The position numbers and the translations under genes were made by a program. Below the pieces are notes generated by a model that worked only from the letters and a program-made list of their open reading frames with translations, was not told the DNA's origin and searched no databases. DNA of 64,000 nucleotides from Deefgea piscis (GTDB lineage: Bacteria; Pseudomonadota; Gammaproteobacteria; Burkholderiales; Chitinibacteraceae). Shown piece after piece: positions 7,510 to 47,763 of this stretch. The stretch covers positions 1,240,001 to 1,304,000 of the forward strand of contig NZ_CP081149.1 of assembly GCF_019665785.1 (NCBI RefSeq), in the 5' to 3' direction. How positions within the stretch are numbered: position 1 is the first letter of the stretch; each line of letters begins with the position of its first letter.

Positions 7510-7558
7510 GGGTATATCTATGTAAACATTGTTTTTAAAGGGTTTTGTATTGATACCC
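7510..7558. repeat. 49-bp GGTAT/ATACC element, copy 1
   Basis: GGGTATAT at the left end and TGATACCC at the right end, with 33 bases between the eight-base ends. The interior begins CTATGTAAAC; the TGTAA followed by a C two bases later recurs in copies at 8728 and 44968. Lies in the gadB-phzF gap. Confidence 0.8.
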
Positions 7559-7841
7559 TAAATAAATGACGATTAACTGCTTGTTGTTTTATTCAGAAAA
7601 AAATGGATATTTAGTAAGAAGCGCAGTGGTTGTGCTGGTGGTCGGTATAAGGGTGGGGTGTGTTTTTTTATTTTAAAAACAATTGCTTGATGTATCTTTT
7701 TTGGGTTTTTGGGAGTGATGAGACTGGGGTTGGTATTTTTTACATTGCGCTTATTTGTTTGTTTTTGTTTTGTAAGTTTTGGTGTATTTTTGTCAGCTTT
7801 GTGAGTGGTGGGTGTTGATTCAGCGAGTGCATCACGCTTTT

Positions 7842-7871
7842 TTGCGCTCAGCGAGGCCGGTCTGAGCGCAA
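7842..7871 (-). terminator. Hairpin after phzF-like gene
   Basis: TTGCGCTCAG (7842-7851) and CTGAGCGCAA (7862-7871) are perfect ten-base arms around a ten-base GC-rich loop, 20 bases beyond the phzF stop. There is no U-run on either strand. Together with the C-rich, G-poor RNA that would follow, this suits Rho-assisted termination or 3'-end protection. Confidence 0.5.
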
Positions 7872-7891
7872 TTGGGGAGAGCTAGGGCGAG

Positions 7892-8716
7892 TTAAATCCA
7901 AAACTCACCTTGGCCGATCGGGCTTACTTTGCCACTGACTTTAATCGTGGTATCTACATCCAGTTGCAAGCGCGCAATACGCTGGATACCGTGGCCTTGT
8001 TCCATGACAAGGCTAAATGGCGTTGGTTTATGTTGTGCGAGCAAATAGCCACCTAAGTTGGCGCAGGCTGAGCCGGTGCCAAAATCTTCAGCAGATACGC
8101 CATTTTGATTCCAAAAATAACGCGCGATGACTGTTTCTCCATCGTAAGCCCAGACCAATGCACCCGCACGTCCTACTAAATTGATAGCCACTTGCATGAA
8201 CTGTTCCGAGTTAGGTTGGCAAGCGGCGACGCTGTCAGCGCAATCTAATTGGATAATCAATTGTTCTGTGCCGCAATTAACAAATTGCGGCTGTTCAACA
8301 ATATGACTACAGCTAATACCAAGGGCACTAGCAAGTTCAGCCCGCTCGGGGCCATCGCGATAGCTGGGTGGGTTGGCGGTGAGTGTGACTTGATGGCCGT
8401 CGATTTGCACGGGGATTAATCCGGCTTTCATTTGCAGCGTGAGTTGTGGACGGCCTTGAGCGATCACAAAGGCAGTGCCAAGCGTGGGGTGGCCCGCAAA
8501 TGGCATTTCATAACTGGGCGTAAAAATACGCACCGCAGCGTCAGCTTGATCACTCGGTGTGACAAAGGTGATTTCAGAAAGGTTCATTTGCTGGCCTAGC
8601 GCGGCCATTTCTGCTGCTGTGATATCGCTCGCGTTGGGGAAAACCGCTAGCGGGTTACCCGAAAACAAGTGTTCGGTCGTAAAAACATTGACGAGCTGAT
8701 ATTGTATCTTTTTCAT
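7892..8716 (-). CDS. PhzF family isomerase-like protein
   Basis: 274 residues of the PhzF/YddE diaminopimelate-epimerase fold. The N-terminal half has the NLSEITFV motif with the presumed catalytic Glu48, and the FAGHPTLGTAFVIAQ glycine-rich block that follows is characteristic. The second half has EDFGTGSACANLGGYLLA, which mirrors the family's second-half glycine-rich loop. PhzF itself isomerises a phenazine precursor, but no other phenazine gene is present, and most members of this family have unknown substrates. So the role is an isomerase or epimerase of unknown substrate. An AGGAAAAAG site precedes the ATG; a copy of the 49-bp repeat ends 12 bases upstream of the start. Confidence 0.9.
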   Translation of the reverse strand: MKKIQYQLVNVFTTEHLFSGNPLAVFPNASDITAAEMAALGQQMNLSEITFVTPSDQADAAVRIFTPSYEMPFAGHPTLGTAFVIAQGRPQLTLQMKAGLIPVQIDGHQVTLTANPPSYRDGPERAELASALGISCSHIVEQPQFVNCGTEQLIIQLDCADSVAACQPNSEQFMQVAINLVGRAGALVWAYDGETVIARYFWNQNGVSAEDFGTGSACANLGGYLLAQHKPTPFSLVMEQGHGIQRIARLQLDVDTTIKVSGKVSPIGQGEFWI

Positions 8717-8727
8717 TCTTTTTCCTA

Positions 8728-8776
8728 AGGTATATTCTTGTAATCAATTAAATAAATAGCCTGCATAGCTATACCT
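8728..8776. repeat. 49-bp GGTAT/ATACC element, copy 2
   Basis: Left end AGGTATAT, right end CTATACCT, exact 42-base offset between GGTAT and ATACC. Interior starts TCTTGTAATC, sharing TGTAA and the following C with copies 1 and 6. It lies 12 bases upstream of the phzF-like start codon, in the divergent phzF/pcnB promoter region. Confidence 0.8.
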
Positions 8777-8885
8777 ACAAAATTTAAGTTTTTTTTAGAT
8801 TGATCAATGAGTGTGATTAGTCCACTTTTTTTCTGGAATCATCACGCAGCGTATAAATCATCCACTGTATGCAGCTCTGCGCTTG

Positions 8886-8891
8886 TATAAT
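8886..8891 (+). promoter_or_regulatory. Consensus -10 box upstream of pcnB
   Basis: A perfect TATAAT occurs 38 bases before the chosen pcnB ATG at 8929. No good -35 hexamer was found at 17 bases. Transcription starting from it would exclude the upstream in-frame ATG at 8869, which helps decide the pcnB start. Confidence 0.45.
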
Positions 8892-8928
8892 ATTGGGTTT
8901 CGCCTCTTTGCAGCTGCAAAATTACCCC

Positions 8929-10272
8929 ATGATTCGTAAATTTATCGGCAAGGTGCTACGGCGCCCAGGACGGCGTGTTGTGCACGCCAAGCACTATGGT
9001 ATTCGCCGTGATCAACTGCACTCTGGTGCGTTGAAAGTCTGTGATCGTCTGCAAGCGGCGGGATACGAGGCCTATATCGTGGGCGGCGCGGTGCGTGATT
9101 TATTGCTCGGCAAGTTACCCAAAGATTTTGACGTTGCAACTAGCGCTACGCCGGAGCAGGTGCGGCATATCTTTAACCGTTCGCGCATTATTGGCCGCCG
9201 TTTTCGGATTGTGCATGTGCCATTTTATGACCGCGGTGGTGAAGAAATCATTGAAGTTACGACCTTCCGTGGTAGTGCAGAATCACCCACCGATGCCAGC
9301 GGGCGAATTATTCGTGACAATGTGTACGGCACGATTGCTGAAGATGCTGATCGCCGCGACTTTACGGTTAATGCCTTGTATTACGATCCAAATACCGAAG
9401 AAATCATCGATTTTCATCACGGCATCGAGGATTTAGAAAAGCAGCAGCTGGTGATGATTGGTGATCCCGTTAAACGCTACCACGAAGATCCAGTGCGGAT
9501 GCTGCGTGCCGCACGCTTATCGGCCAAATTGGGTTTGGCGATTGCGCCTGATACTCGCAAGCCAATACGTGATCACGCCGCTTTACTGGAGAATATTCCG
9601 TCAGCGCGATTATTCGATGAAATGATGAAGTTATTGCTGTCGGGCAAGGCATGGGATTGTATGCAAGCGTTGCGTGCGCATGGTCTACATCAACCTTTGT
9701 TTCCATTATTGGACAAGCTACTGTCTCAGCCAGAAACCGCCAAGTTTTTACAAAAAGCACTTGAAAACACCGATCAGCGCTTAGCCGATGATAAGCCAGT
9801 CTCGGCTGGATTTTTGTTTGCCGCTTTACTCTGGCACGAAGTTGAAGCGCTTTGGCAAAAGCGCCTTGCTGCCGGTGAAACCAAAATCACCGCCTTGATC
9901 GACGCGATGAATGAGGTTGAAAGTAAAGTCAGTAAACGTTTAGCAGTTCCCAATCGCTACAGTGCGGCAATGAAAGAAATTTGGTTGTTGCAGCCGCGAT
10001 TTGAGCAACGGGTTGGTCTGCGCCCGTTCCGACTATTAGAGCAAGCGCGGTTTCGAGCGGCGTATGATTTCTTACTCTTGCGTGCCGATTGCGGCTTAGT
10101 GGAAAAATCTTTGGCCGATTGGTGGACGCAATTTCAAGTCAGTGATGAAACAGAGCGAACGGCGATGATTGATTTGGCGGCCAAAAATGGTCAATCAGGT
10201 GATGCACCTGCCAAGCGCCGTAAACGTAGTCGTCAGCGTAAGCCTGCGGCTCTAAAGCAATCTGGAAACTAA
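8929..10272 (+). CDS. pcnB: Poly(A) polymerase I
   Basis: Class II nucleotidyltransferase that adds poly(A) tails to RNA and so promotes decay. From the ATG at 8929 it is 447 residues. Visible motifs: the nucleotide-binding GGAVRDLLLG, the catalytic DFDVATSATPEQV with two Asp, RDFTVNALYYDP, and RYHEDPVRMLRAARLSAKLG of the neck domain. A basic C-terminus (AKRRKRSRQRKPAALK) fits RNA binding and is typical of PcnB as opposed to CCA transferase. A longer frame from 8869 exists, but a TATAAT at 8886 lies inside it and the family starts near MIRKFIGKVLRR. folK follows four bases later, the common pcnB-folK operon. Confidence 0.95.
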   Translation: MIRKFIGKVLRRPGRRVVHAKHYGIRRDQLHSGALKVCDRLQAAGYEAYIVGGAVRDLLLGKLPKDFDVATSATPEQVRHIFNRSRIIGRRFRIVHVPFYDRGGEEIIEVTTFRGSAESPTDASGRIIRDNVYGTIAEDADRRDFTVNALYYDPNTEEIIDFHHGIEDLEKQQLVMIGDPVKRYHEDPVRMLRAARLSAKLGLAIAPDTRKPIRDHAALLENIPSARLFDEMMKLLLSGKAWDCMQALRAHGLHQPLFPLLDKLLSQPETAKFLQKALENTDQRLADDKPVSAGFLFAALLWHEVEALWQKRLAAGETKITALIDAMNEVESKVSKRLAVPNRYSAAMKEIWLLQPRFEQRVGLRPFRLLEQARFRAAYDFLLLRADCGLVEKSLADWWTQFQVSDETERTAMIDLAAKNGQSGDAPAKRRKRSRQRKPAALKQSGN

Positions 10273-10276
10273 AGCG

Positions 10277-10774
10277 ATGAAAATTTTTGTCGCTTTAGGC
10301 GCTAATTTGGGCGATCCAATCGCTCAACTTAATACAGCATTGGCCAGCTTAGCCGCTTGGCCAAAAATGACACTGGTACGCAGCTCGTCTTTTTATCGCA
10401 GCGCTGCAGTGGGTTATACCCAGCAACCTGATTTTGTGAATGCGGTTTGCGAAATCGACACCGAGTTGACTGCGCTTGAGGTCTTGGCGGCTTTACTCTC
10501 AATTGAGACCCAAAATGGCCGTGCTCGTGAATTTAAAAACTCACCCCGCACTTTAGATTTGGATTTGATTTTGTATGGTCAAGCGCAATACGATTTAGCC
10601 AACTTACAAGTGCCACATCCACGGATGCACCAGCGTGCTTTTGTTTTGCAACCTTTGCTTGAAATCGCGCCAGAAATTGAAATTCCACAACTCGGTCCAG
10701 CAAAGCACTTTCTTGCTACTGTAGCCGAGCAAGTATTGACGCGCATTCCTCAGAAAGCCACGCTTGCGGCTTAA
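10277..10774 (+). CDS. folK: 2-amino-4-hydroxy-6-hydroxymethyldihydropteridine pyrophosphokinase
   Basis: Transfers pyrophosphate from ATP to 6-hydroxymethyl-dihydropterin in folate synthesis. The 165 residues are the normal length. Family features are the start FVALGANLGDP, the VGYTQQPDFVNAVCEIDT strand region, ENGR-like QNGRAREFKNSPRTLDLDL and the metal-binding RTLDLDLILYG, followed by VPHPRMHQRAFVLQPL. It begins four bases after pcnB. folB and folA lie elsewhere in the window (54329 and 17822), while folP is not seen. Confidence 0.97.
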   Translation: MKIFVALGANLGDPIAQLNTALASLAAWPKMTLVRSSSFYRSAAVGYTQQPDFVNAVCEIDTELTALEVLAALLSIETQNGRAREFKNSPRTLDLDLILYGQAQYDLANLQVPHPRMHQRAFVLQPLLEIAPEIEIPQLGPAKHFLATVAEQVLTRIPQKATLAA

Positions 10775-10885
10775 ATGTATCGATTTTCTGATCTATCTCC
10801 ATTAGGATTGGTGCACTTTGCGGGGACGGCTCCATTTGCCGTCATCGCAGCGCCAACAGCAGCACCAAAAGTGCTGATCTTTTAA
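10775..10885 (+). CDS. Possible 36-residue leader peptide between folK and panB
   Basis: An ATG directly abuts the folK stop (TAAATG) and opens 36 codons that end 19 bases before panB. The peptide [13 protein letters not shown] continues to a hydrophobic VLIF end. It has no known domain and no separate ribosome site, so it would depend on coupling to folK. It overlaps alternative pairings described at 10811-10885. It could be a chance frame. Confidence 0.25.
10811..10885 (+). promoter_or_regulatory. Mutually exclusive hairpins upstream of panB
   Basis: CAGCAC (10860-10865) pairs with GTGCTG (10871-10876) and is followed by ATCTTTT, resembling a weak terminator. GCACTTT near 10813 can instead pair with AAAGTGC at 10868-10874, which would break it. 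This has the shape of an attenuator but the stems are short. Confidence 0.3.
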
Positions 10886-10904
10886 ACTGCATGGATACCG
10901 AACC

Positions 10905-11696
10905 ATGAAGACGACTCTGACTACATTACAAAAAATGAAACAAGATGGCCAAAAAATAGCCATGTTGACTTGCTACGATGCCAGCTTTGCGACGCTATTG
11001 GATGCCGCAGGCGTGGATATTTTTTTGGTCGGCGATTCACTTGGCAATGTAATCCAAGGGCATCGCTCAACCTTGCCGGTGACCATGGATGATATGCATT
11101 ACCACACACAGGCGGTGGCTCGCGGCACGCAAACAGGTCTAGTTTTGGCTGATCTACCCTTTGGTAGTTATCAAATTTCACACGCCCAAGCCTATGAAAA
11201 CGCCGCACGATTGATGGCTGCTGGTGCTGAAATGGTAAAAATTGAAGGCGGTGCAGTCATGGTCGATACCGTTCAATTTTTGGTGCAACGCGGTATTCCA
11301 GTTTGCGCACACATTGGTTTGCAGCCGCAATCGGTGCATGTGTATGGTGGATATAAAGTACAAGGCAAAACGGAATTAGAAGCTGAAGTGCTGTTACGCG
11401 ATGCGTTGGCATTGCAAGCCGCAGGCGCCAGTATGGTGTTGATGGAAATGGTGCCAGCGTCGGTTGCCAAAACCATTACCGAATCATTGTCTGTCCCCAC
11501 GATTGGTATTGGTGCTGGCGTTGATGTCGACGGCCAGGTGCTGGTGCTGTACGACATGCTCGGCGTTTATCCCGGTAAGAAAGCTCGTTTCGTGAAAAAC
11601 TTTATGAGTGGCAGCCATAGTATTCAAGGCGCGGTTGAAGCGTATGTGAAAGCGGTGAAGGGCTTAACTTTCCCCGCCGAAGAGCATTCTTTTTAA
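10905..11696 (+). CDS. panB: 3-methyl-2-oxobutanoate hydroxymethyltransferase
   Basis: Makes ketopantoate from 2-oxoisovalerate and methylenetetrahydrofolate, the first step to pantothenate. The 263 residues match E. coli PanB (264). Diagnostic stretches are [18 protein letters not shown], the Mg-binding [22 protein letters not shown] [11 protein letters not shown], and [12 protein letters not shown] with the active-site Glu. It is followed by panC about 170 bases on, and its folate cofactor is chemically linked to the preceding folK pathway. The start ATG after an ACC context has no strong ribosome site. Confidence 0.97.
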
Positions 11697-11865
11697 TTAA
11701 GAACTGGATTACGAATAGGACGAAAACGACCGAATTAAAGCTTAAGTTGTCGTTTAATTGGTCAATTGCTCTGTCTCTCTAGTGTTTTTACTGTCGCGCT
11801 CGGGTTTCGTTGCTTTGGTATTCCAGCCGTTGTTATCTACCTTCAAATTTCAGTCATCACACACC

Positions 11866-12708: not shown

Positions 12709-12722
12709 ATATTGATGTATTC

Positions 12723-12761
12723 AAAAAAAGTCATCCACACGAATATGTCGATGACTTTTTT
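12723..12761 (+). terminator. Terminator after panC
   Basis: AAAAAGTCATC pairs with GATGACTTTTTT around a 14-base loop; the U-run follows directly. Its A-rich left arm also allows action on the opposite strand. Confidence 0.8.
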
Positions 12762-16235: not shown

Positions 16236-16284
16236 GGGTATTTGAATGCGGGTAATAGATTTTAATAGTCGTGGGTCTATACCT
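16236..16284. repeat. 49-bp GGTAT/ATACC element, copy 3
   Basis: Left end GGGTATTT, right end CTATACCT, with the exact 42-base offset. The right end is identical to that of the copy at 8728. It begins four bases after the flagellin stop codon. Confidence 0.8.
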
Positions 16285-18324: not shown

Positions 18325-18373
18325 GGGTATATGGCGCTAGATTTTTATTTGCAAGATCTTGATGTATATACCC
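18325..18373. repeat. 49-bp GGTAT/ATACC element, copy 4
   Basis: Perfect eight-base ends GGGTATAT and ATATACCC with 33 bases between. It begins 12 bases after the folA stop and lies upstream of the shared folA/ppa terminator. Confidence 0.85.
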
Positions 18374-19263: not shown

Positions 19264-21954
19264 ATGAAACCCCACTATCTTGCCCCTTTGTTTGATCCCT
19301 CTTCAATTGCGGTGGTGGGCGCATCGGATACGGTTGGCTCGGTTGGGTATTCAGTCACGAAAAACATTCTGGATGGTGGCTATGCTGGCGCGCTGTATGC
19401 GGTGAATCTAAAGCATAAAACGGTGCAGGGTTTACCGGCGGTAAAAACGCTCAGCAAGATCACCAATCCGGTCGATTTGGCGATTCTGACGACCCCCAGT
19501 CGTACGCTACTGAAGTTAATCGAAGCGTGTGCTCAGCAAAATATTCGCCACGTGATGATTATGTCTTGCGATTTTGTTGGCCAAGATAAAGCCAGCCAAA
19601 AACTGCTAAATAAAATTTTACAGCTGGCTAAATCGCTCAATATTCGTATTTTAGGGCCGTCGGTATTTGGCTATTGCCGCGTCTCGAGTAAATTATTGGC
19701 GGCCAATTTTAGTGGCAAAATAAAAAGTGGCAGCTTGGCTGTGGTCTCGCAATCGTCTTCAGTCACCACGGCGATTTTAGACTGGGCTGAGTTGCACGAC
19801 GTTGGTTTTTCTTCAGTGGTTTCTTTAGGTACCGCATCCGATATCGACGTGGGCGATGTGCTGGATTATTTGGTTGCTGACCCGAAAACCAAATCCATTT
19901 TGCTGTATATCGAAGAATTAAAAGACGCTCGCTTATTCATGTCGGCGCTACGCGCTGCATCACGCTCTAAAGCGGTTTTGGCGTTAAAAGTCGGGCGTTA
20001 TGAGCAAGAAATTAAAGTTGGCCGCACGCATTCCGAGCGCCTAATTAATCACAATGATGTGTTTGATGTGGCACTGAAACGCGCAGGGGTATTGCGTTTA
20101 CGCTCGATCAATCAATTGTTCACCGCGATTCGAGTGATGGACGGCTCTTATCGTACCAAAGGTCGTCGTCTGGCGATTATTACCAACGGTATTGGCGCAG
20201 GTTTAATGGCGGTCGATCGTGCCAACGATTTACATATTGCATTGCCGCAATTGACCGAGGCCACCATTACCCAGTTGCGCGGACTATTGCCGCTGCAAAG
20301 CAGTGTTCACAATCCGGTAGACGTTTTGGGTGATGCCAATGCCGAGCGCTTTAAACTCGCCACTGAGTTGGTGATTAAAGATCCAAATATCGATGGCGTG
20401 TTGGTGGTGTTTACCCCGCAAGTTGGCACTGACGATATGGCGACGGCCGAGGCGATGATTGCGCTGAAAAAAACCACCGATAAGCCTTTGCTATTGGCGT
20501 GGGTGGGTGGCAAGAAAATCGATGCCAGCCGAAAATTACTCGGCAAATCGCAAATGGCGTTTTTTAATGCGCCAGAAAGCGCGGTTGAAGTGTTTTATTC
20601 GCTGGCTGCATGGCAATACAATCAGCAATTGCTGCTACAAACGCCAAGTCCTTTGGGCGAAATGGAAGCGCCAGATCTCGAAACCGCGCAAATGATTATT
20701 AGCACCGTGTTGGCCAGTGGCCGCGAAGTACTGGATGAAGTGGAATCAAAAGCGATTTTGCGCGCGTTTCATATCCCCGTTACGCTCACCATTCGAGCGC
20801 AATCGGTCGACGAGGCCGTATCGGCGGCAATGGGTTTGGGTTTGCCGGTGGCGATGAAGATCGACGCCAAAGGTATATTGCATAAAACCGATATCGATGG
20901 CGTGGTGCTTAACCTTAATAGCTTGGTGCAGGTGGCAACCGAAGCCAGCAAAATGTTGTCGCGCGCGCAAGAGCGGCTTGGCGCCGAGAATGTGCGTGGC
21001 TTGGTGATTCAACCAATGCATGGCAAAAAATCCGGCCGCGAGCTGATGGTGGGGGTTGGCCGTGATCGCGCGTTTGGTCCGGTGATTACGTTTGGTTATG
21101 GTGGGGTTACTGTTGAGGTATTTAATGACATCGCAGTGTCGTTGCCGCCGCTCAATGAATACCTCGCTGAAAATCTAATTAGTCGCACGCGAGTCAAAAA
21201 AATGCTCGCGCCATTTCGCAATTTGCCCGGCGTGGATATGGCAGCGGTGAAGGCCGTGTTAATGCGGGTTTCGGAGATGGTGTGTGAGTTTCCACAAATT
21301 CAGCAGCTGGACATTAATCCGCTGATTGCCGATGAAAATGGCGTTATTGCTGTGGATGCGCGGATTGTGTTGGCGCCATTAGCCGAGCATGCACGTCGTT
21401 ATAGCCATATGGCGATTCACCCTTATCCGGCGCATTTGGCGCAAGTTACACATTTGAAAAATGGTCTGCCGCTGGTATTACGGCCAATTCGTCCTGAAGA
21501 TGCCGATTTGATTGCCTTGTTTGTGAGTAAGTTGTCCGATGAAAGTCGCTATAACCGCTTTATGAGCACTTTAAAATCATTGCCACAAGCAATGCTGGCG
21601 CGTTTTACCCAGCTCGATTACACCCGAGAAATGGCGATTGTGGCGACGGTTGAAACAGGGATCGGTACTGAAATCATTGGCGTTGCCCGTTTTAATGCCA
21701 ATCCAGATCGAGATAGTTGCGAGTTTGCAGTGGTGATTAGTGATCAATGGCAAGGGATGGGCTTGGGTGGGCGCTTGATGAATGCCTTGTTTATCGCCGC
21801 CCGCGATATGGGTTTGTCGGTGATTGAAGGCGAGGTGTTAAGTAGTAATAAAACCATGCTCACCTTTATGAAGCATATGGGCTTTAGTATTACCCGCCAT
21901 GCGGAGGACGATAGCTTGAAGTGGGTGGTGAAGCACTTGGAGGACGTGATTTAA
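19264..21954 (+). CDS. pat: Protein lysine acetyltransferase, ADP-forming acyl-CoA synthetase-like with GNAT domain
   Basis: A large 896-residue protein with the order CoA-binding domain (FDPSSIAVVGASDTVGSVGY, from residue 10), succinyl-CoA-ligase-like domain (VVSQSSSVTTAILDWAE), ATP-grasp domain (MKIDAKGILHKTDIDGVVLN, IDPL-like DINPLIADENG) and a C-terminal GNAT domain (from about residue 735; QGMGLGGRLMNALFIAA). This is the layout of E. coli YfiQ/PatZ, which acetylates and inhibits acetyl-CoA synthetase. Sensing of acyl-CoA by the first part is inferred. TGAGG nine bases before the ATG at 19264 sets the start; an upstream TTG in frame is rejected. Confidence 0.92.
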   Translation: MKPHYLAPLFDPSSIAVVGASDTVGSVGYSVTKNILDGGYAGALYAVNLKHKTVQGLPAVKTLSKITNPVDLAILTTPSRTLLKLIEACAQQNIRHVMIMSCDFVGQDKASQKLLNKILQLAKSLNIRILGPSVFGYCRVSSKLLAANFSGKIKSGSLAVVSQSSSVTTAILDWAELHDVGFSSVVSLGTASDIDVGDVLDYLVADPKTKSILLYIEELKDARLFMSALRAASRSKAVLALKVGRYEQEIKVGRTHSERLINHNDVFDVALKRAGVLRLRSINQLFTAIRVMDGSYRTKGRRLAIITNGIGAGLMAVDRANDLHIALPQLTEATITQLRGLLPLQSSVHNPVDVLGDANAERFKLATELVIKDPNIDGVLVVFTPQVGTDDMATAEAMIALKKTTDKPLLLAWVGGKKIDASRKLLGKSQMAFFNAPESAVEVFYSLAAWQYNQQLLLQTPSPLGEMEAPDLETAQMIISTVLASGREVLDEVESKAILRAFHIPVTLTIRAQSVDEAVSAAMGLGLPVAMKIDAKGILHKTDIDGVVLNLNSLVQVATEASKMLSRAQERLGAENVRGLVIQPMHGKKSGRELMVGVGRDRAFGPVITFGYGGVTVEVFNDIAVSLPPLNEYLAENLISRTRVKKMLAPFRNLPGVDMAAVKAVLMRVSEMVCEFPQIQQLDINPLIADENGVIAVDARIVLAPLAEHARRYSHMAIHPYPAHLAQVTHLKNGLPLVLRPIRPEDADLIALFVSKLSDESRYNRFMSTLKSLPQAMLARFTQLDYTREMAIVATVETGIGTEIIGVARFNANPDRDSCEFAVVISDQWQGMGLGGRLMNALFIAARDMGLSVIEGEVLSSNKTMLTFMKHMGFSITRHAEDDSLKWVVKHLEDVI

Positions 21955-23146: not shown

Positions 23147-23560
23147 ATGTCTCTGTTTCGTGTTTTTGATGTTGCATCATCGGCAATGAATGCGCAGTCG
23201 GCGCGCTTGAATGTGGTGGCGAGTAATTTGGCTAATGTCAATTCGGCGACCAGCTCTGATGGGCAGCCGTATCGGGCTAAGCAGGTTGTATTTCAAGCCG
23301 TGCAGAGCAATACCCATAATGCTGCGTCGGTAGGGGTGAAGGTTGCTGGGGTGATCGAAGATCAATCACCACCGCGTTTGGTTTACGATCCAAAGAGTCC
23401 TTTTGCCGATGCCAATGGCTACATCGCGATGCCTAATGTCAGTGTGATTGAAGAGATGACCAATATGATTTCAGCGTCACGTTCGTACCAAACCAATGTT
23501 GATGTAATGAATACAGCAAAAACCTTGCTGATGCGCACTTTGTCGATCGGTCAAGCTTAA
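23147..23560 (+). CDS. flgC: Flagellar basal-body rod protein FlgC
   Basis: 137-residue proximal rod protein. It has the N-terminal rod motif ([19 protein letters not shown]), the FlgC-type [20 protein letters not shown] near the C-terminus and the terminal [17 protein letters not shown]. It polymerises with FlgB, FlgF and FlgG in the periplasmic rod. AAGGAATGC precedes the ATG. Second gene of the operon, eight bases before flgD. Confidence 0.97.
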
Positions 23561-29187: not shown

Positions 29188-29213
29188 TATCTGGGTATAT
29201 TATCTGGGTATAT
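29188..29213 (+). repeat. Perfect 13-base tandem duplication next to a 49-bp element
   Basis: TATCTGGGTATAT occurs twice back to back (29188-29200 and 29201-29213). The second unit supplies the left GGGTATAT end of the 49-bp element at 29206, so that end is duplicated here. Confidence 0.85.
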
Positions 29214-29254
29214 GTGTACTGGCATTTATATGTAAAGCTTGTGCACATATACCC
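29206..29254. repeat. 49-bp GGTAT/ATACC element, copy 5
   Basis: The best-paired copy: GGGTATATGTG at the left faces CACATATACCC at the right, 11-base arms, exact 42-base offset. It is 46 bases after the flgI stop, in the gap before flgJ. Confidence 0.85.
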
Positions 29255-30430: not shown

Positions 30431-32449
30431 ATGGCCTCATCGGTATTTGGTATTGGCGTCTCGGGCTTAAATGCCGCTAATTTAGGTTTAACGACCACTG
30501 GGCATAATATTGCCAACGTCAACACCGATGGCTATTCTCGGCAAACGATTAAGCAAAGCGCGCCTTATCCTTTGCTGACCGGCAATGGTTTTAATGGTTT
30601 GGGCGTGCAGGTCGACTCGATTAAGCGTGTTTATGATCAGTTTTTGACGCGTGCCGTCGATATTGCGCAAACCCAGTCGAGCTACCAGCAAACTCGTTTG
30701 GCTCATTTGGCAGAAGTTAATAATATTGTTGCCGATCCAACTGCAGGCGTGTCTCCGGCACTGCAAGAATTTTTTGCCTCAGTACAAAATGTGGCGACCA
30801 ATCCAAGTAATCCACCGTCGCGTCAATCGATGCTGTCAAGCGCACAAACTTTACTGAATCGCTTTCAGGTTTTTTCTCAGCGCTTAAATGAGCAGCGTGC
30901 TTCGCTCAATGGTGAGATCTCTAATACGGTGGGAACGATTAATGCCTATGCCGCACAAGTTGCTGATTTGAACAGTAAAATTGTCGTCGCGCAAAGTAGT
31001 GGTCAGCCGCCCAATGATTTGCTGGATCAGCGCGATTTGCTGGTGAAAGATTTAAATAAAATGATTAAAACCACGTCGCTGCCGTTAAGCGATGGTTCGA
31101 TTAATTTATTTGTTGGTAATGGCCAAGGCTTAGTGGTGGGCTCACAAACCTATACTTTAGGTGCCGTCCCCAATCCTGGTAATCCAGAAAGTCTGTCAAT
31201 TAGTTATGAGCAAAATGGCAATTCAATTTTACTACCTGATAGTTTAGTGACGGGTGGGCAGTTGGGCGCTTTATTGGATTACCGCAATCAATCGCTGGAT
31301 TTGGCACAAAATAGTTTAGAGCGCACCGCATTGGGTTTGTTAAGTACGTTCAATCAGCAGCATCAGGCTGGCCAAGATTTAAACGGCAATATGGGCAAAG
31401 CATTTTGGTCTTTTTCAACGACCAATTTAGGGCCTGGCATTGACGCCCCGAAGATCGGCTTGATTCGACCCAACACCAATAATAGCGTGCCTGCGACAGC
31501 GGCATTAACGGGGTATATTCAAGATATCTCGAAGCTAACGACCAGCAATTATGAGCTCAGTTATGACGGCACGAATTACGCTTTGGGCAATATGAGTGAT
31601 GGTACTAAATACACATTGACTGCCGCCGAGGCTGCCGCGTTAACTACCCCTGCGGGATTTACGAGCTCTACAGGTTTGTCTTTGTCACTCAGTGCGACTC
31701 CCGCTGCCGGGGATCGCTTTACCATCATGCCGTTAAAAGGCTTTATTGATCAGGCGAAGGTCAATGTGAGCGATCCACGGGAAATTGCCGCGGCTGGTCC
31801 TATTGCCGCCGTTGAGCCCAAAGCGCCTGCTGCAGTGAATACGGGGACTTTAAAGGTGTATCAGCCTGACGTGAAGCCCCAGACTGCGGTAACGACCGAT
31901 ACCTCGATAGACCCGAATTTATTTACACCCGTGACCTTGACGTTTGTACCTGATGCGTCGTTCCCCTCGGGGATGGCTTATACCGTGACTGGGGCAGTGC
32001 CAGTAGTGGTTGGCAATCAGGAGTACAAAGCCGGTAACGAGGTGAGTTACAACGGTTGGACGATGAAACTCGATGGCAAACCGGCCAGTGGCGATAGTGT
32101 CACGGTGCAAAAAAATGCGGTAACAGCTAGCTCAGATAACCGCAATGCTTTGGCGCTAGGGAAATTACAAACCACCCGAGTATTGGATGGCAATACGGCG
32201 ACGTATCAAGAGTCGTATGGCCGTATGGTGGCAACAGTGGGGACGCAAACCAGTGAGGCGACCATTATGGGCAAGGCGCAAGGTAAGTTGTTAATTAGTG
32301 CCGAAAATAATCGCAATTCAGTTTCAGCAGTCAATTTAGATGAAGAGGCGGCTAATTTATTGCGCTATCAGCAGGCTTATCAGGCCTCAAGTAAAGTCAT
32401 TCAAATCGCTCAAAAAGCCTTTGATGAAATCGTTAATTTAGGCCGATAA
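30431..32449 (+). CDS. flgK: Hook-associated protein 1 FlgK
   Basis: First junction protein between hook and filament. 672 residues, longer than enteric FlgK (547), the extra length lying in the variable middle domain. N-terminal signature: FGIGVSGLNAANLGLTTTGH with NIANVNTDGYSRQ. C-terminal: VNLDEEAANLLRYQQAYQAS and KVIQIAQKAFDEIVNLGR. AGGAG lies eight bases before the ATG. flgL follows after 24 bases. Confidence 0.96.
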   Translation: MASSVFGIGVSGLNAANLGLTTTGHNIANVNTDGYSRQTIKQSAPYPLLTGNGFNGLGVQVDSIKRVYDQFLTRAVDIAQTQSSYQQTRLAHLAEVNNIVADPTAGVSPALQEFFASVQNVATNPSNPPSRQSMLSSAQTLLNRFQVFSQRLNEQRASLNGEISNTVGTINAYAAQVADLNSKIVVAQSSGQPPNDLLDQRDLLVKDLNKMIKTTSLPLSDGSINLFVGNGQGLVVGSQTYTLGAVPNPGNPESLSISYEQNGNSILLPDSLVTGGQLGALLDYRNQSLDLAQNSLERTALGLLSTFNQQHQAGQDLNGNMGKAFWSFSTTNLGPGIDAPKIGLIRPNTNNSVPATAALTGYIQDISKLTTSNYELSYDGTNYALGNMSDGTKYTLTAAEAAALTTPAGFTSSTGLSLSLSATPAAGDRFTIMPLKGFIDQAKVNVSDPREIAAAGPIAAVEPKAPAAVNTGTLKVYQPDVKPQTAVTTDTSIDPNLFTPVTLTFVPDASFPSGMAYTVTGAVPVVVGNQEYKAGNEVSYNGWTMKLDGKPASGDSVTVQKNAVTASSDNRNALALGKLQTTRVLDGNTATYQESYGRMVATVGTQTSEATIMGKAQGKLLISAENNRNSVSAVNLDEEAANLLRYQQAYQASSKVIQIAQKAFDEIVNLGR

Positions 32450-40035: not shown

Positions 40036-40347
40036 TTAGGCGAAATGACAAACGTAATGCAGCGTTTCGATGGTTTCAATATCAAAGCTTGAGTTCGCTG
40101 GAACGCTGAAAGATTGACCAGCAGAGTATGTTGTTGCAGTGCTTTCGTTCGCTAGTTTAACTGAGCATACCCCAGCAACAATTTCCATGATTTCAGCTGC
40201 GCCGGTATTAAAAGTCAGTGCGGACGGTTGAATAACACCGATGGTTTTTTTGCTGCCATCGGCAAACAAAACAGTATGGCTGACACATTTGCCATCAAAA
40301 TAGACATTGCCTTGCTTTAAAACAGAAACTTGATCAAATTGGCTCAT
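40036..40347 (-). CDS. ppnP: Pyrimidine/purine nucleoside phosphorylase
   Basis: 103 residues of the YaiE/PpnP cupin family (DUF1255). Start [20 protein letters not shown]; cupin strands [33 protein letters not shown] and [20 protein letters not shown]. The family phosphorolyses several nucleosides. AGGAAGTCACT precedes the ATG; a frame extension of 46 residues upstream overlaps the DUF2788 gene and is rejected. Confidence 0.93.
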
Positions 40348-42000: not shown

Positions 42001-42624
42001 TCAGTTCAGTGCGAGGCGCAAGCCAAAGCTGACAAACAAAGTGCCTACTAATTTATTTAACAAGGTTTTCAGCCAGATTTTAGCTGAAAGTCGGCGTGCT
42101 AGGCTGCTACCGACCAAGATTAAAGTGGTCAAATAGCTGATGCTGACCAATTGCACGATGAGCCCGAGCGCGGCAAAAGTATGCCAAACGTGTGGGTAAT
42201 TCGGGTTCACAAACTGCGGAAAAAACGCCATAAAAAATAAAATGGCTTTTACATTCACGAGTGAAATACCCAGCGCAGAGCGAAAGGCTTTTTTTGCCGA
42301 GTGTTCAGGGTGGCTAGCCTCAGGGGTATCTTTCTGAGACTTAGCAAATAAAGCGCGTATACCGATATACGTCAGATAGGCAGCGCCTAAATAACGCACG
42401 ATATCAAAGGCAATGGGGTTGGCTTTCATTAAAGAAGCCACCCCTAAACTCGCCGCCAGCATCAAAATTAAATCGCCCACCACAATGCCCGCAGCAGCCG
42501 CAAAGCCAGCTTTGCGACCACGGGTACTGGCCATGGTGAGCGCAAATAATGAATTAGGGCCTGGTACTAAAATAATCAGTACCGTTCCCAATACATACGC
42601 CCAAAGATCGGTGATGCCTAACAT
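42001..42624 (-). CDS. LysE/RhtB family amino-acid exporter
   Basis: 207 residues, six membrane helices. The family motif appears as GTVLIILVPGPNSLFALTMA followed by RGRKAGFAAAAGIVVGD. The ATG directly follows the argF stop (no spacer), and argG follows 43 bases later, so it is embedded in an arginine-related group. Export of arginine or a related amino acid is a reasonable inference but the substrate is not readable from sequence. Confidence 0.93.
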   Translation of the reverse strand: MLGITDLWAYVLGTVLIILVPGPNSLFALTMASTRGRKAGFAAAAGIVVGDLILMLAASLGVASLMKANPIAFDIVRYLGAAYLTYIGIRALFAKSQKDTPEASHPEHSAKKAFRSALGISLVNVKAILFFMAFFPQFVNPNYPHVWHTFAALGLIVQLVSISYLTTLILVGSSLARRLSAKIWLKTLLNKLVGTLFVSFGLRLALN

Positions 42625-43539: not shown

Positions 43540-43714
43540 CAGATTTTGTCCTGGTCGATTAGCACTTAGCATGTGACCAAATGGCTGAAAAAACGAACAT
43601 TATTCAATGTTTTTCCCCATAAAGGCAAGTCATTTGCGGGATCTGTTGGCTGTGTACTTATTCAGCATGGCGCTACATTTTCATGAGCTGGAGTCTAAGT
43701 GGAGTGTTATACTG

Positions 43715-44050
43715 ATGTCAGTTCTCGAATTAAATAAAGCATTCGCCCACATGATCTGCAATCCCTACGAAATCATTATTCAAGGCATTACCAGTAACGG
43801 GCGCGAATTTCGCCCTAGCGATTGGGCTGAGCGCCTCTCAGGTATCCTGTCTACTTTTGGTGTCGACCAAAAGTTGTCTTACGCGCCATTTGTTCGGCCG
43901 ATGGTGCATAACAACGTGCGTTGTGTTGCCGTTGATAAACAATTAGAAAAAATCGATCCGCGCGTTTTTGAATTTATTATGACTTTCGCCCGCGACAATG
44001 ATTTGCGAGTGGTCGATTGTCGTTCCCTGATCCAAGAGAGTGATCTCTGA
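43715..44050 (+). CDS. DUF3579 family protein
   Basis: 111 residues from the ATG at 43715. NPYEIIIQGITSNGREFRPS, DWAERLSG and YAPFVRPMVHNNVRCVAVD are the DUF3579 core of betaproteobacteria; function unknown. A longer frame from 43607 is rejected because its 36 extra residues are not of protein-like composition and the family begins near here. In other betaproteobacteria DUF3579 genes often lie beside argF; here they are divergent neighbours. Confidence 0.9.
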   Translation: MSVLELNKAFAHMICNPYEIIIQGITSNGREFRPSDWAERLSGILSTFGVDQKLSYAPFVRPMVHNNVRCVAVDKQLEKIDPRVFEFIMTFARDNDLRVVDCRSLIQESDL

Positions 44051-44176
44051 CGCGAATGCGTGCGATCGCTACATGTTTACAATCAATTGACGTAAATCCT
44101 GTTGTTGCGACGCAGCATTTGTTCTATGCTGCATAAGTAACCCGTATGGGTATCTGACAGCGTGTAGGGGTATGTT

Positions 44177-44917
44177 ATGAGATTGAAAGATAAAGTAGCG
44201 ATCATTACGGGCTCTGCGAGCGGTATCGGCGAAGCCACGGCGATTAAATTCGCCGCCGAAGGTGCAAAAGTCGTGGTATGTGATGTTAATCCAGCGGGCG
44301 TTGCTGCGGTCGTTGCCGCATTAACAGCCGGTGGTGCTGATGCGGTGGGTTATGTGGTTGATGTCACGAAGACTGACACCATTGCTGCGATGGTGGCCGC
44401 CGTGAAGGACAAATATCAGCGAATTGACGTCTTAGTGAACAATGCGGGCATCGTCATGGATGCGCAGTTATTTAAAATGACTGAAGACCAGTTTGATCGC
44501 GTGATTGATATTAATTTAAAAGGTGTTTACAACTGCACTAAAGCGGTTGTTGATACCATGATTGAGCAAAAATCAGGCGTGATTCTAAACGCATCCTCAG
44601 TGGTGGGGATTTACGGTAATTTTGGCCAAACCAATTATGCCGCATCTAAATTTGGCGTCATTGGTTTTGTAAAAACATGGGCGAAAGAACTCGGTAAAAA
44701 AGGCATTCGTGCCAATGCGATTTGTCCGGGTTTTGTTGCTACGCCAATTTTGAATGACATGCCAGAAAAAGTCATTCAAGCGATGGAAGAAAAAGTGCCA
44801 ATGCGCCGTCTTGCACAGCCTGCTGAAATTGCCAATGTATACGCATTTTTAGCATCGGATGAAGCTAGCTATATCAATGGCGCGGTAATTGAAGTTACCG
44901 GTGGTTTGACCTTGTAA
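44177..44917 (+). CDS. fabG: SDR family 3-oxoacyl-ACP reductase-like oxidoreductase
   Basis: 246-residue NAD(P)H-dependent short-chain dehydrogenase. Rossmann motif [20 protein letters not shown] motif ([15 protein letters not shown]), catalytic Ser-Tyr-Lys ([21 protein letters not shown]) and [14 protein letters not shown]. It lies outside any fab cluster, so it could serve fatty-acid synthesis, acetoacetyl-CoA reduction (PhaB-type) or another substrate. The symbol marks the family. Followed by a terminator. Confidence 0.9.
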
Positions 44918-44935
44918 ATATTGCTTTTTCCAATA

Positions 44936-44966
44936 AAAATCCCGCTATCAATGGCGGGTTTTTTAT
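44936..44966 (+). terminator. Terminator after fabG-like gene
   Basis: CCCGCTAT and ATGGCGGG around CA, with A-run before and TTTTTT after. The 49-bp element begins two bases beyond. Confidence 0.88.
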
Positions 44967-44967
44967 T

Positions 44968-45016
44968 GGGTATATATCTGTAAGCTATTGTTGATGTTCG
45001 CTTTGGTTCAATACCT
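44968..45016. repeat. 49-bp GGTAT/ATACC element, copy 6
   Basis: Left end GGGTATAT, right end CAATACCT, exact offset. Interior begins ATCTGTAAGC, sharing TGTAA and C with copies 1 and 2. It lies between two converging genes, 18 bases from the L,D-transpeptidase stop. Confidence 0.8.
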
Positions 45017-45033
45017 TCAATCAGCACTTCATA

Positions 45034-46308
45034 TTAATTGAGTGCATTGCCTTCCCAAACGATTTTCCAGCCTGCGTTATCTTGCTGCCAATACAAGCGC
45101 TTTTTCATCTGATTATTCAAATTGTTACTGCGGTAGTTTTGATTAAAGGTTGCCACCATTTGGCTGGCTTGAGGACCTGCCGCAAAAATGGATAGATCAT
45201 TTAGCTGAACTTTACTCCAAGTTTTTCCAGCGTTGACGCTCGCTTTTTGCTCGCGCCAAGTGCTGATATTTTGTCCCTCACCACTGCGAAAATCAGCCGA
45301 ATAAAAGTTCAAGTATTGCTGGGTATCGAGCGCTTCCCAGCTACTTTTCCATTGCTCAAGTAGGGCTAGTCCGGCGTTGTGTTGTTGTTGCCATTGCTCG
45401 GCATTGACCCATTTGATGGCCGGCACTGAGATCACCGGCGTGTTGCCCGGTTGTAGGTATTGGGCGACATCCAGCATTTCTTCATTGGTGAGTACAACAC
45501 AGCCATTGGATGCTTGTGGCGCTCGAGCATACGTGGCCGCAGGGCTGCCATGCAGCCAGATGCCGTGTCCGGTGCGGCTTTGACTACGATCGAGTTCATT
45601 CGGATAAGAAATCGGCCAAGCCCCAACACCATATAAATCAGCCAGTGAACCATAGGTTTTATCCAGCTGTTCGCGAGGAAGGTGGCTGGTGACGAAGTAA
45701 ACGCCAAGCGGTGAGCGTTGGTCGCCCTCCACTTTTTTATCAACGCCCAATAAACCCACGGTGACGTAATGATCTTTTATACGTTTGGGGCGTCCGTTGT
45801 CATTGGCAAAGACATACAGTCGCGATGTTGCGGCATCGATCAAAATGGCGAATTTTTGCTGCGGTGCAAAAGCCACAATATTGGCCGGCAAGCGATCGGC
45901 ATTAATCTTGTCGTTGCGGTGCGCAATTCGCACTAAGGCTTCTTTGCGTAAATCATCGAGTACATTGCTGGGTGCGCTGGCGACGCCGCCGCCGATCGTC
46001 GATAGCGGCATTACACGCATAGCGTAAAGGTCCGCACGTAATAATTGGGCGAGACGATAATTGGGTTGCTCGGCAATCAGCGCGTCGACCGTGGCGCGAG
46101 CGTCGGCCATATTGCCACTACGAATCGCATCTAGTGCGGCGATGATTCGTTCTTCATGACTGCCGGTATGCGCCACGCCTTTCGCTTCGCTGCTCAGCTC
46201 GAACGAAGCGTCGCTAAATTCAAAAAAGCGCGGCGTGGCGGCAGGCGCCAAGCAAAGTAACGCAGCCAAGCAAAGTAGACGCTTGGTCCAAGGGGATAAA
46301 CGTAGCAT
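45034..46308 (-). CDS. L,D-transpeptidase with C-terminal NTF2-like domain
   Basis: 424 residues: signal peptide, N-terminal TPR-like helices (AALDAIRSGNMADARATVDA), a YkuD catalytic domain in the middle (about 165-300) with HG in GHGIWLHGSP and the Cys motif SNGCVVLTNEEM, and a C-terminal NTF2/SnoaL-like domain (from about 315; WKSSWEALDTQQYLNFYSAD). The Cys enzyme would cross-link peptidoglycan or attach proteins in the periplasm. In the usual SxGCxR motif the Arg is replaced by Leu two residues on (GCVVL). The preceding TPR gene has the same type of C-terminal domain. Confidence 0.9.
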   Translation of the reverse strand: MLRLSPWTKRLLCLAALLCLAPAATPRFFEFSDASFELSSEAKGVAHTGSHEERIIAALDAIRSGNMADARATVDALIAEQPNYRLAQLLRADLYAMRVMPLSTIGGGVASAPSNVLDDLRKEALVRIAHRNDKINADRLPANIVAFAPQQKFAILIDAATSRLYVFANDNGRPKRIKDHYVTVGLLGVDKKVEGDQRSPLGVYFVTSHLPREQLDKTYGSLADLYGVGAWPISYPNELDRSQSRTGHGIWLHGSPAATYARAPQASNGCVVLTNEEMLDVAQYLQPGNTPVISVPAIKWVNAEQWQQQHNAGLALLEQWKSSWEALDTQQYLNFYSADFRSGEGQNISTWREQKASVNAGKTWSKVQLNDLSIFAAGPQASQMVATFNQNYRSNNLNNQMKKRLYWQQDNAGWKIVWEGNALN

Positions 46309-46316
46309 ACTGATTT

Positions 46317-47450
46317 TTAGCCGCCGATCCGTTCTTCAAGTATCAACCAGCGATTGCCACTTTTTTGCATGATGAGTGTTTTGGTGGTGTTGCTGGATAA
46401 GCGATCTGATTTGTACGATTGACGTAGTGTGACCTTGGCATTGTTATCGTCAATCATACTGACTTTAAATTTACTGACTTTGACGTCAATGGATTTAGGG
46501 CCGGCAATTTTGCTTTGACGGTCTTTTTCCCACGCGGCACGTCCGCCAGGGGCTTTGAATGATTTGGCGTAGCTATTAACGTAAGCGCCGACATTTTGCT
46601 TGCTCCACGCATTGGCCCAATCTTCTACGCTGGCAATGACTTGCTGTTGCTGTTCTTTGTCTGCGTTAGGCGTGCTTGTTGCCTTGGGTGTTGTCGTTGG
46701 TGTGCTCTTTGGCGTTGCAGTTGGGGTGCTCTTTGGCGCTACTGTTGGGCTGATGCTGGCCAGTACCGTGGCTGTTGCTTTTGGCGCCGTAGTTTTACTC
46801 GGCACAATCGCAGGTAGCGTTGGTTGTGGCGTAATAATGCCAATATTGGCCGACGCACTCACTTGAGTTTTGTTGGCTGCAGGGAGTACTTTTGCGGCTA
46901 ATGGTATGGTTGTCGTTTGCGCCGCAGCGATTCGTGTTGCCGGGGCTTGATTTGGATTGAATAGGGTGCCAACTAATTTGAGTTTGGTTTGTAGCTGCGA
47001 ATTGCTGTTCTCGATTTGCAATGCTTTGTCATATGCCTGCGAGGCGAGGCGGGCATACAAATCACCCATGTTTTCATGAGCGATGGCATAACTTGGATTA
47101 GTTTGAATCGCCATTTGCAATGCGGTACGGGCTTTGTCAAATTGCTTGGTATTGGCATAAAGCACTGCGAGATTATTGTAAGGCTCAGGGAGATGCGGAT
47201 AGTCTTCAGAGAGTTTATTAAACGCCTTGATGGCATCTTCGTTGCGACCCATTTCGGTTAATGCAATGGCGCGTAAAAATCGAACTTGCGCGTCTTTCGG
47301 AGTTTTGGCGAGAAACTTATCCGCACGTTCTACCGCTTGCGCAAATTGTCGTGCACGTAAGAGTTGCTGCAGATCTTCTGCTTCACCGGCATAGGCCATG
47401 CAGGTCATTACAGAAAAAACAGCGGCGAAAGTAATACGAGCTACAGACAT
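46317..47450 (-). CDS. TPR protein with Thr/Pro-rich linker and NTF2-like domain
   Basis: 377 residues from ATG 47450: signal peptide (SVMTCMAYAGEA), three to four TPR units (residues 25-140, such as PEPYNNLAVLYANTKQFDKA), a long Ala/Thr/Pro linker with repeated TPKST/TPKAT units (about 190-270), and an NTF2-like C-terminal domain (VEDWANAWSKQNVGAYVNSY). It lies eight bases upstream of the L,D-transpeptidase in one operon. The shared C-terminal fold suggests they act together at the cell wall. A frame extension of 17 residues upstream is rejected. Confidence 0.85.
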   Translation of the reverse strand: MSVARITFAAVFSVMTCMAYAGEAEDLQQLLRARQFAQAVERADKFLAKTPKDAQVRFLRAIALTEMGRNEDAIKAFNKLSEDYPHLPEPYNNLAVLYANTKQFDKARTALQMAIQTNPSYAIAHENMGDLYARLASQAYDKALQIENSNSQLQTKLKLVGTLFNPNQAPATRIAAAQTTTIPLAAKVLPAANKTQVSASANIGIITPQPTLPAIVPSKTTAPKATATVLASISPTVAPKSTPTATPKSTPTTTPKATSTPNADKEQQQQVIASVEDWANAWSKQNVGAYVNSYAKSFKAPGGRAAWEKDRQSKIAGPKSIDVKVSKFKVSMIDDNNAKVTLRQSYKSDRLSSNTTKTLIMQKSGNRWLILEERIGG

Positions 47451-47714
47451 TTTGATTCCAAGCGGTGAGGACCAACGATAAATTTGGCGCAATTCTACCA
47501 AATATTTAGTGATTTGGCCTTGCTGAACTGAGCTACAACGACGTTACAGGTTTTATTTCACAATACTGCGAAATTTGAGCGGCCTTTGTCATTGTGTATG
47601 GACGTTTTAAAGCTGCGAGCTGTCGCTTGCTCGGGTGTTTTCCTTCTCTGTGATGCAGCAAGATACTGATGTCGCGATTTATTGTGTGATTGTCATCATC
47701 ACGTTTTTCACTAT
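47451..47714. other. Intergenic region between TPR gene and nuclease gene
   Basis: Apart from the 49-bp element that ends at the nuclease stop, nothing recognisable; no long frame and no strong hairpin. It should carry the promoter for the TPR/L,D-transpeptidase operon. Confidence 0.5.
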
Positions 47715-47763
47715 GGGTATTGCTCTAAAATCGATATTTAATATTGGCTAGGTGGCAATACCT
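47715..47763. repeat. 49-bp GGTAT/ATACC element, copy 7
   Basis: Left end GGGTATTG, right end CAATACCT (identical right end to copy 6), seven-base inverted match, exact 42-base offset. Its last base is the final base of the nuclease stop codon. Confidence 0.78.

What the first reader, a model, noticed from the sequence alone, without database searches (positions are those of the whole stretch)
7510..47763. A family of seven 49-bp intergenic elements with fixed geometry: GGTAT and ATACC 42 bases apart
At 7510-7558, 8728-8776, 16236-16284, 18325-18373, 29206-29254, 44968-45016 and 47715-47763, GGTAT is followed by its reverse complement ATACC at exactly 42 bases, start to start. The outer eight bases are near GGGTATAT and ATATACCC; the 33-base interior is mostly free. 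Under equal base use I would expect about 0.06 such exact pairs in the window by chance, and all seven lie between genes. Copies at 7510, 8728 and 44968 also share TGTAA then C two bases later. Right ends come in shared variants (CTATACCT twice, CAATACCT twice). Several begin or end at 0, 4, 12, 12, 18 or 46 bases from a coding end. Fixed spacing with a variable middle suggests two binding half-sites on the same DNA face, or a structured RNA, rather than a recent mobile element. A weaker eighth candidate is at 62071 (ATACT instead of ATACC).
Basis: partly seen in the sequence, partly recalled or inferred. Interest (0 to 1): 0.82.

Follow-up and report, generated by a model that had tools for sequence, protein, structure and literature searches.

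The report
Genome-wide paired DNA-binding motif in Deefgea
Roughly eight hundred copies of two tiny DNA words, GTAT and ATAC, held exactly 41 bases apart, are spread over this bacterium's chromosome and kept by evolution, which points to an unknown DNA-binding protein that reads the whole genome.

Summary
The genome (Deefgea, Chitinibacteraceae) has 382 GGTAT-N37-ATACC against 3 for the reversed control. Fourteen genomes of three genera have 259-542; the other 47 relatives searched have 0-8. The near-invariant core is GTAT-N37-ATAC, about 800 copies per genome, extrapolated from 25% of it. One-mismatch forms of the core are at background in G000 and g6. Other spacings are not enriched, except one base longer inside genes. 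Copies favour convergent junctions, avoid divergent ones, and about 40% are coding. Across seven Deefgea species, six intergenic copies keep core and spacing while interior and flanks diverge; coding copies are retained well above unpaired controls. A third half-site (ATAC, 8-9 bases outside one end) compensates for a missing outer G in G036 and g11, not significantly in G011 or G000. This indicates an oligomeric protein gripping both ends, under selection at each site. Mobile-element, RNA-hairpin, RAYT-REP and replacement-terminator readings are not supported. The binding protein was not found; a chromosome-architecture role is inference.

The parts
7510..7558 (.). intergenic copy
   Evidence: exact core; present in G002 and G001, lost in G005, no alignable counterpart in G003, G004, G006
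8728..8776 (.). intergenic copy, between divergent genes
   Evidence: core present in all 7 Deefgea genomes compared
16236..16284 (.). intergenic copy just after a flagellin gene
   Evidence: core present in all 7 Deefgea genomes; Pfam Flagellin
18325..18373 (.). intergenic copy just after a dihydrofolate reductase gene
   Evidence: core present in all 7 Deefgea genomes; a copy also follows the g6 orthologue in L083
   Evidence: kept in all 7 Deefgea genomes and in three g6 genomes, same length without the site in G016, G062, G012, G014, G018
23267..23315 (.). coding copy
   Evidence: core kept in all 7, one alignment gap inside the G006 row
29206..29254 (.). intergenic copy after flgI
   Evidence: core present in all 7 Deefgea genomes
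31856..31904 (.). coding pair, may be chance
   Evidence: kept in G001, G002, G005, not in G003, G004, G006; weak-position score -21.9
40124..40172 (.). coding copy
   Evidence: core kept in all 7, one alignment gap inside the G006 row
42324..42372 (.). coding copy
   Evidence: core kept in all 7
44968..45016 (.). intergenic copy between convergent genes, after a terminator-like hairpin and T run
   Evidence: core present in all 7 Deefgea genomes
47715..47763 (.). intergenic copy at the end of a nuclease-domain gene
   Evidence: core present in all 7 Deefgea genomes
50586..50634 (.). coding copy with a third half-site (ATAC at 50575-50578)
   Evidence: core kept in all 7; outer ATAC also in the six congeners
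60170..60218 (.). coding pair
   Evidence: kept in G001, G002, G005, G004; right half changed in G006 and G003
   Evidence: its conservation was counted only pooled with the other intergenic copies

Best explanation
Each copy is the binding site of one oligomeric, two-fold symmetric DNA-binding protein (not identified) used chromosome-wide in Deefgea and two sister genera. Shown from sequence: two required half-sites, GTAT and its reverse complement, 41 bp apart (about four helical turns, hence one face); weaker symmetric preferences about 10-20 bp inward and at the base outside each half-site; an optional third half-site, ATAC 12-13 bp outside one end, that in G036 and g11 goes with a missing outer G; and retention of the core at individual sites. 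Inferred: one protein assembly holds both ends at once, covering about 50-75 bp. Inferred with less certainty: because about 800 sites are spread evenly along the chromosome, follow genes rather than sit in divergent promoter regions, and also occur inside genes, its main job is chromosome architecture (an abundant nucleoid protein or loop anchor) rather than control of particular genes.
For: Spacing is unique: 211 GTAT-N37-ATAC in 904 kb against 9.0 at control spacings. One-mismatch forms are at background in G000 (242 against 235.6, sd 21) and g6 (66 against 73.7, sd 9.1). Six intergenic copies kept in all 7 Deefgea genomes with diverged interiors. Coding half-sites retained 14/14 in three near congeners and 12/14, 11/14, 11/14 in three far ones against 63-72% and 34-41% for unpaired ones. 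Third half-site at 28 of 58 sites in G036, 8 of 35 in G011, 8 of 16 in g11, 9 of 205 in G000, other offsets averaging 0.35, 0.21, 0.09, 1.15; it goes with a missing outer G in G036 (17 of 27 against 11 of 89) and g11 (8 of 13 against 1 of 21). Counts per 20 kb have variance/mean 1.04 over 43 stretches. Divergent junctions avoided, 5 of 63.
Against: No binding protein was identified, and no binding, ChIP or structural data exist. The compensation is not significant in G011 (3 of 19 against 5 of 51) and G000 (5 of 127 against 4 of 291). Decayed copies do exist when weak positions are used to find them: 4 one-mismatch against 108 perfect in G000, 5 against 36 in g6, 1 against 7 in g11. Some copies are present in only part of the genus, and between genera few are shared: 2 of 8 gene ends with a site in either, from only 19 gene pairs. 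The arm-pairing excess of intergenic copies and the 43-spaced coding copies are not explained. The architecture role is not tested.
Confidence: 0.5

Rival explanations
1. Target of a DNA-acting enzyme (site-specific recombinase, topoisomerase, nickase, or a modification-and-repair system as proposed for HIP1) that tolerates only intact sites.
For: The strict core and rarity of one-mismatch forms suit an enzyme target. In HIP1 too the 1-nt deviations fall on the first and last bases (PMC4390886, passages seen), as here (46 of 49 intergenic one-mismatch copies).
Against: Gene order on both sides is kept at the six conserved copies; no extra tyrosine recombinase stands out among 12 genomes; compensation by a third half-site fits plain binding at least as well. 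Methylation, nicking and breaks were not testable.
Confidence: 0.15
2. A DNA uptake sequence for natural transformation, accumulated by biased uptake and recombination.
For: Clade-specific, hundreds of copies, uniform, in genes and between them; slightly even spacing (fraction of gaps under 1.5 kb 0.17 against 0.25 simulated, p 0.014; CV 0.77 against 0.86, p 0.08). The order Neisseriales includes species with such sequences (PMC3630211, passages).
Against: Mismatched uptake sequences are over-represented in H. influenzae and N. gonorrhoeae (PMC1939737 Table 1, section read); my arithmetic from that table gives one-mismatch excess over perfect excess of 0.30 and 0.37, against 0.03 in G000, -0.09 in g6 and 0.27 in the small g11 sample. 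The same paper calls those sequences non-palindromic (passage). A pair at fixed distance is needed here.
Confidence: 0.12
3. A transcription device at gene ends: roadblock, bidirectional terminator or 3'-end hairpin.
For: Copies favour convergent junctions (19 of 63) and lie close behind stop codons; intergenic copies pair more than permuted arms (542 against 453, sd 15), at co-directional and convergent but not at 14 divergent junctions. Terminator-like hairpins are a little rarer where a copy is present (11 of 48 against 71 of 243; 15 of 42 against 49 of 103).
Against: About 40% of copies are coding and have no pairing excess; no G-U bias (28 against 24); the terminator difference is small and was not tested for significance; a copy can follow a terminator-like hairpin (44968).
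Confidence: 0.12
4. Copies of a small mobile element (MITE, REP/REPIN) that spread by transposition.
For: Fixed length, inverted ends, hundreds of copies, mostly extragenic; the tetranucleotide recalls GTAG of REPs (recall).
Against: Interiors differ between copies and between orthologous copies; the coding copy at 21116 has the same length in five orthologues without the site; Y1 transposase domain not found in 5 of 15 site-bearing genomes; no set of unpaired ends pointing to a full-length element.
Confidence: 0.02

Closest known systems
DNA uptake sequences (DUS/USS) of Neisseriaceae and Pasteurellaceae
   Same: Clade-specific, hundreds to thousands of copies, genes and intergenic regions, small strict core
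   Different: Two inverted half-sites at a fixed 41 bp; one-mismatch forms at background in G000 and g6 where uptake sequences show an excess (PMC1939737)
REP/BIME/REPIN elements with RAYT transposase
   Same: Inverted ends, many copies, often after genes
   Different: Interior not conserved, about 40% coding, Y1 transposase domain not found in 5 of 15 site-bearing genomes
HIP1 of cyanobacteria
   Same: Highly iterated palindrome, deviations at the outer bases (PMC4390886, passages)
   Different: HIP1 is a contiguous octamer tied to methyltransferases; here two words 41 bp apart; methyltransferases were not examined
Chromosome-organising sites (parS/NBS, matS, SlmA sites); recalled
   Same: Palindromic, scattered, bound by a dimeric protein
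   Different: Those are contiguous and fewer, and regional (recall); here uniform along the chromosome and about 800; no second strong ParB homologue shared by the site-bearing genomes
LysR-type regulator sites (ATAC-N7-GTAT and similar); recalled
   Same: ATAC/GTAT inverted half-sites, tetramer footprints of 50-60 bp (recall)
   Different: Here ATAC-N8/9-GTAT is optional and GTAT-N37-ATAC is required; divergent promoter regions are avoided; no LysR protein was tested

Membership tests
DNA uptake sequence | Mismatched forms over-represented as expected from uptake drive | tested here: not met
   (G000 and g6 at background; g11 too small to tell) against PMC1939737 Table 1; with a weak-position filter a few decayed copies appear
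DNA uptake sequence | Promotes uptake of DNA | not testable with these tools
   needs transformation assays
REP/REPIN | RAYT (Y1) transposase in the genome or lineage | tested here: not met
   no match at E 0.001 in G002, G003, G011, G016, G061; present in the other 10 site-bearing genomes
REP/REPIN | Extragenic | tested here: not met
   41 of 105 exact copies coding
MITE | Presence by insertion, with an empty site | tested here: not met
   one coding copy examined: equal length in five orthologues without the site; two further rows unusable; target duplications not systematically tested
Intrinsic terminator | G+C-rich hairpin plus T run, taking the place of other terminators | tested here: not met
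   no T run in the flank logos; terminator-like hairpins nearly as frequent with as without a copy
ParB/Noc-type site | A ParB-family reader specific to site-bearing genomes | tested here: not met
   one strong ParB_N match in each of 43 genomes, extra matches scattered over site-bearing and site-less genera
Nucleoid-protein site | Bound by an abundant protein that shapes the chromosome | not testable with these tools
   needs pull-down, ChIP-seq, Hi-C
Known structured RNA | Match to an Rfam family | tested here: not met
   only the SRP RNA in the window reaches its gathering score
Integron attC site | Core boxes and integrase | not tested
   considered because copies follow stop codons; no test was run

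The most novel reading that the evidence does not exclude
A new class of chromosome-wide DNA code: a rigid protein assembly with at least three DNA-reading heads that measures 41 bp between two GTAT words, is loaded at about 800 individually selected sites in the genomes of three sister genera, and is the main sequence-specific organiser of their chromosomes, belonging to no described family of nucleoid proteins.
Probability: 0.3. Interest if true: 0.95.

Novelty: new variant of a known kind. Interest (0 to 1): 0.85.

Why it matters
Few bacterial motifs are known to be so numerous, so strict and kept site by site, and those that were understood (uptake sequences, KOPS, matS, parS; recalled) each revealed a basic process. 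Here the geometry, a measured 41-bp distance between two four-base words with compensation by a third, was not found described in my searches of open-access papers (listings only, three of them empty). The genus includes culturable species, so a pull-down with a 75-bp probe should name the binding protein and make its function testable.

Tried and rejected
Mobile-element, REP/RAYT, ParB/Noc, terminator and RNA readings were tested and set aside. Phage-integrase family in 12 genomes (8 site-bearing, 4 not): two strong matches in nearly every genome plus scattered others; I saw no extra one shared by the site-bearing genomes, by eye. Unpaired high-scoring half-sites are few (18 at score 8 or more against 4.1 expected, 199 paired); several of the best listed are visibly 43-spaced or decayed copies. 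The 1-2 copies in each of nine g8 genomes were followed as a possible ancestral locus of the binding protein: six of ten loci fetched hold or match type I restriction-modification genes, and in one (L111) the HsdM-like protein is 94% identical over 534 residues to one in G000, so that one looks transferred. Two g8 genomes share three copies; two of these have diverged interiors and kept cores, which remains open. Orientation of the third half-site with GC skew: 21 of 54, none. Paired with the leading-strand question, the six congener rows (6 of 6) are one conserved site and were not counted.

Limits: gene models come from a codon-usage script of my own, not from a published annotation; it missed for instance the open frame 47763-48404. 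In one search the rows G009 and G017 took a wrong, longer frame and were not used. In one search only 19 gene pairs between genera could be compared.

Full report
WHAT IS THERE. The seven reported copies exist as described; an eighth exact copy, 21116-21164, lies inside a gene. The window is G000:C1:1240001-1304000 of a 3,575,158-bp genome with 382 GGTAT-N37-ATACC against 3 for the reversed pattern. Contigs of two congeners match, by length and position, an uncultured Deefgea record and Deefgea chitinilytica, so genus g1 is Deefgea (Chitinibacteraceae, Neisseriales). The other genera are unnamed in the tools and keep their labels.

DISTRIBUTION. Among 61 genomes, the seven of g1 have 259-453, the five of g6 376-542 and the two of g11 276-298; the other 47 have 0-8, with controls 0-6. 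A stricter pattern over 43 genomes of the family finds a sixth g6 genome (238), 1-2 copies in each of nine g8 genomes, and none in the other seven genera. Among 398 genomes drawn across the phylum only G000 has it in number (196); the others have 0-2, controls 0-1.

ANATOMY. I worked on 904 kb of G000 (window plus 42 stretches) and on 320 kb of g6 and 80 kb of g11, with gene models from a script. Of 105 exact copies in G000, 54 are intergenic, 10 overlap a gene edge and 41 are coding. Spacing 42 has 62 intergenic pairs against 0.21 on average elsewhere and 42 coding pairs against 1.01; spacing 43 is raised in coding DNA only (11). One-mismatch copies at spacing 42 fall on the outermost base in 46 of 49 intergenic and 38 of 62 coding cases, so the core is GTAT-N37-ATAC: 120 intergenic against 2.3 and 91 coding against 7.2. 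For this core, perfect pairs are 211 against 9.0, one-mismatch pairs 242 against 235.6 (sd 21); in g6 93 against 2.4 and 66 against 73.7 (sd 9.1); in g11 17 against 0.4 and 16 against 11.6 (sd 4.1), too few to tell. When only copies with good weak positions are counted, some decayed ones appear: 4 one-mismatch to 108 perfect in G000, 5 to 36 in g6, 1 to 7 in g11. The excess of 202 in 904 kb extrapolates to about 800 per genome. Weak symmetric preferences read roughly RGGTATWKSnnYSYARnCnWT, partly seen in coding copies.

THIRD HALF-SITE. ATAC stands 13 or 12 bp outside GTAT at 28 of 58 sites in G036, 8 of 35 in G011, 8 of 16 in g11 and 9 of 205 in G000, other offsets averaging 0.35, 0.21, 0.09 and 1.15; no site has it on both sides. 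Ends lacking the G next to GTAT carry it in 17 of 27 cases in G036 and ends with the G in 11 of 89 (p 5.6e-7); in g11 8 of 13 against 1 of 21 (p 5e-4); in G011 3 of 19 against 5 of 51 and in G000 5 of 127 against 4 of 291, neither significant. Such compensation outside the palindrome is what additive protein contacts would give.

SELECTION. Six intergenic window copies are present in all seven Deefgea genomes compared, core and spacing intact, interior and flanks diverged; the copy at 7510 is lost in G005, with changes in both halves, and not alignable in three genomes. Copies present only in the G003/G004/G006 group also exist. Coding half-sites in pairs are retained 14/14 in the three near congeners against 63-72% for unpaired ones, and 12/14, 11/14, 11/14 in the far ones against 41%, 34%, 36%; both halves 6/7, 5/7, 5/7. 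Intergenic paired halves are retained 16/16, 15/16, 14/16, 7/7, 6/6, 5/5 where alignable. At 21116 the codons GAG GTA TTT and GAA TAC C are identical in G000 and three g6 genomes while other synonymous positions vary; G016 (g11), G062, G012, G014 and G018 have equal length and no site; two more rows were unusable. So this copy did not arise by insertion. Between genera sharing of gene-end copies is low: both 2, one only 6, neither 11 of 19 pairs.

CONTEXT. Of 63 intergenic or edge copies 39 lie between co-directional, 19 between convergent and 5 between divergent genes; eligible gaps are 330, 85 and 100. Many start close behind a stop codon. Counts per 20 kb have variance/mean 1.04 over 43 stretches; GC skew changes sign near 0.35 and 2.1 Mb. 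The three stretches poorest in G+C (0.400, 0.405, 0.447) hold 1, 1 and 0 copies against a mean of 3.3. Of 80 dhfr loci the two Deefgea ones have a copy downstream of the gene, at 2 and about 310 bp; other pairs in these loci lie elsewhere.

PALINDROMY. Intergenic copies pair left with right arms more than permuted arms do (542 against 453, sd 15, in G000; 243 against 212.6, sd 11, in g6), coding copies do not (215 against 215; 108 against 107). The excess is seen at co-directional (737 against 621) and convergent (449 against 371) but not at 14 divergent junctions (109 against 103.5). Helix mismatches show no strand bias (28 G-T, 24 A-C), so I read it as symmetry of the DNA; templated repair of quasi-palindromes (recalled) is one possible cause. 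It stays unexplained.

MECHANISM. Shown by sequence: a strict two-part site with a measured distance, additive side contacts and retention at individual sites. Inferred: an oligomeric protein gripping both ends on one face. Inferred with less confidence: chromosome architecture, since copies are uniform, numerous, outside divergent promoter regions and tolerated in genes. Enzyme target, uptake sequence and transcription block are the live rivals.

LITERATURE. I saw search listings, three empty searches, one section and passages of PMC1939737, and passages of PMC4390886 and PMC3630211. None of what I saw described this motif; subscription papers were not searched.

Noticed in passing
L104-L106, L109-L111 (genus g8): Type I restriction-modification operons with variable cargo (DUF1016/YhcG nuclease, Fic, Schlafen-like) carry the few motif copies of this genus; L111 HsdM-like and HsdR-like parts are 94% identical to L071 of G000.
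   Followed up: partly
L107 and L108 (genus g8): Three copies in a conserved metabolic gene cluster of two genomes; cores kept while two interiors diverge, though this genus has almost no other copies.
   Followed up: partly
L058 (G000:400001-420000): Densest stretch of the sample, 10 copies in 20 kb with three close pairs, about 55 kb from the skew-inferred origin.
   Followed up: no
window 52319-52366 and ten other coding places: Copies with spacing 43 instead of 42 are enriched in coding DNA only (11 against about 1); the one in the window is not kept in G003, G004, G006.
   Followed up: partly
window 51923-52020, minus strand: Bacterial small signal recognition particle RNA (Rfam RF00169).
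   Followed up: no
intergenic copies in G000, G036, G011: Excess arm-to-arm complementarity at intergenic but not coding copies, without G-U bias; cause unknown.
   Followed up: partly
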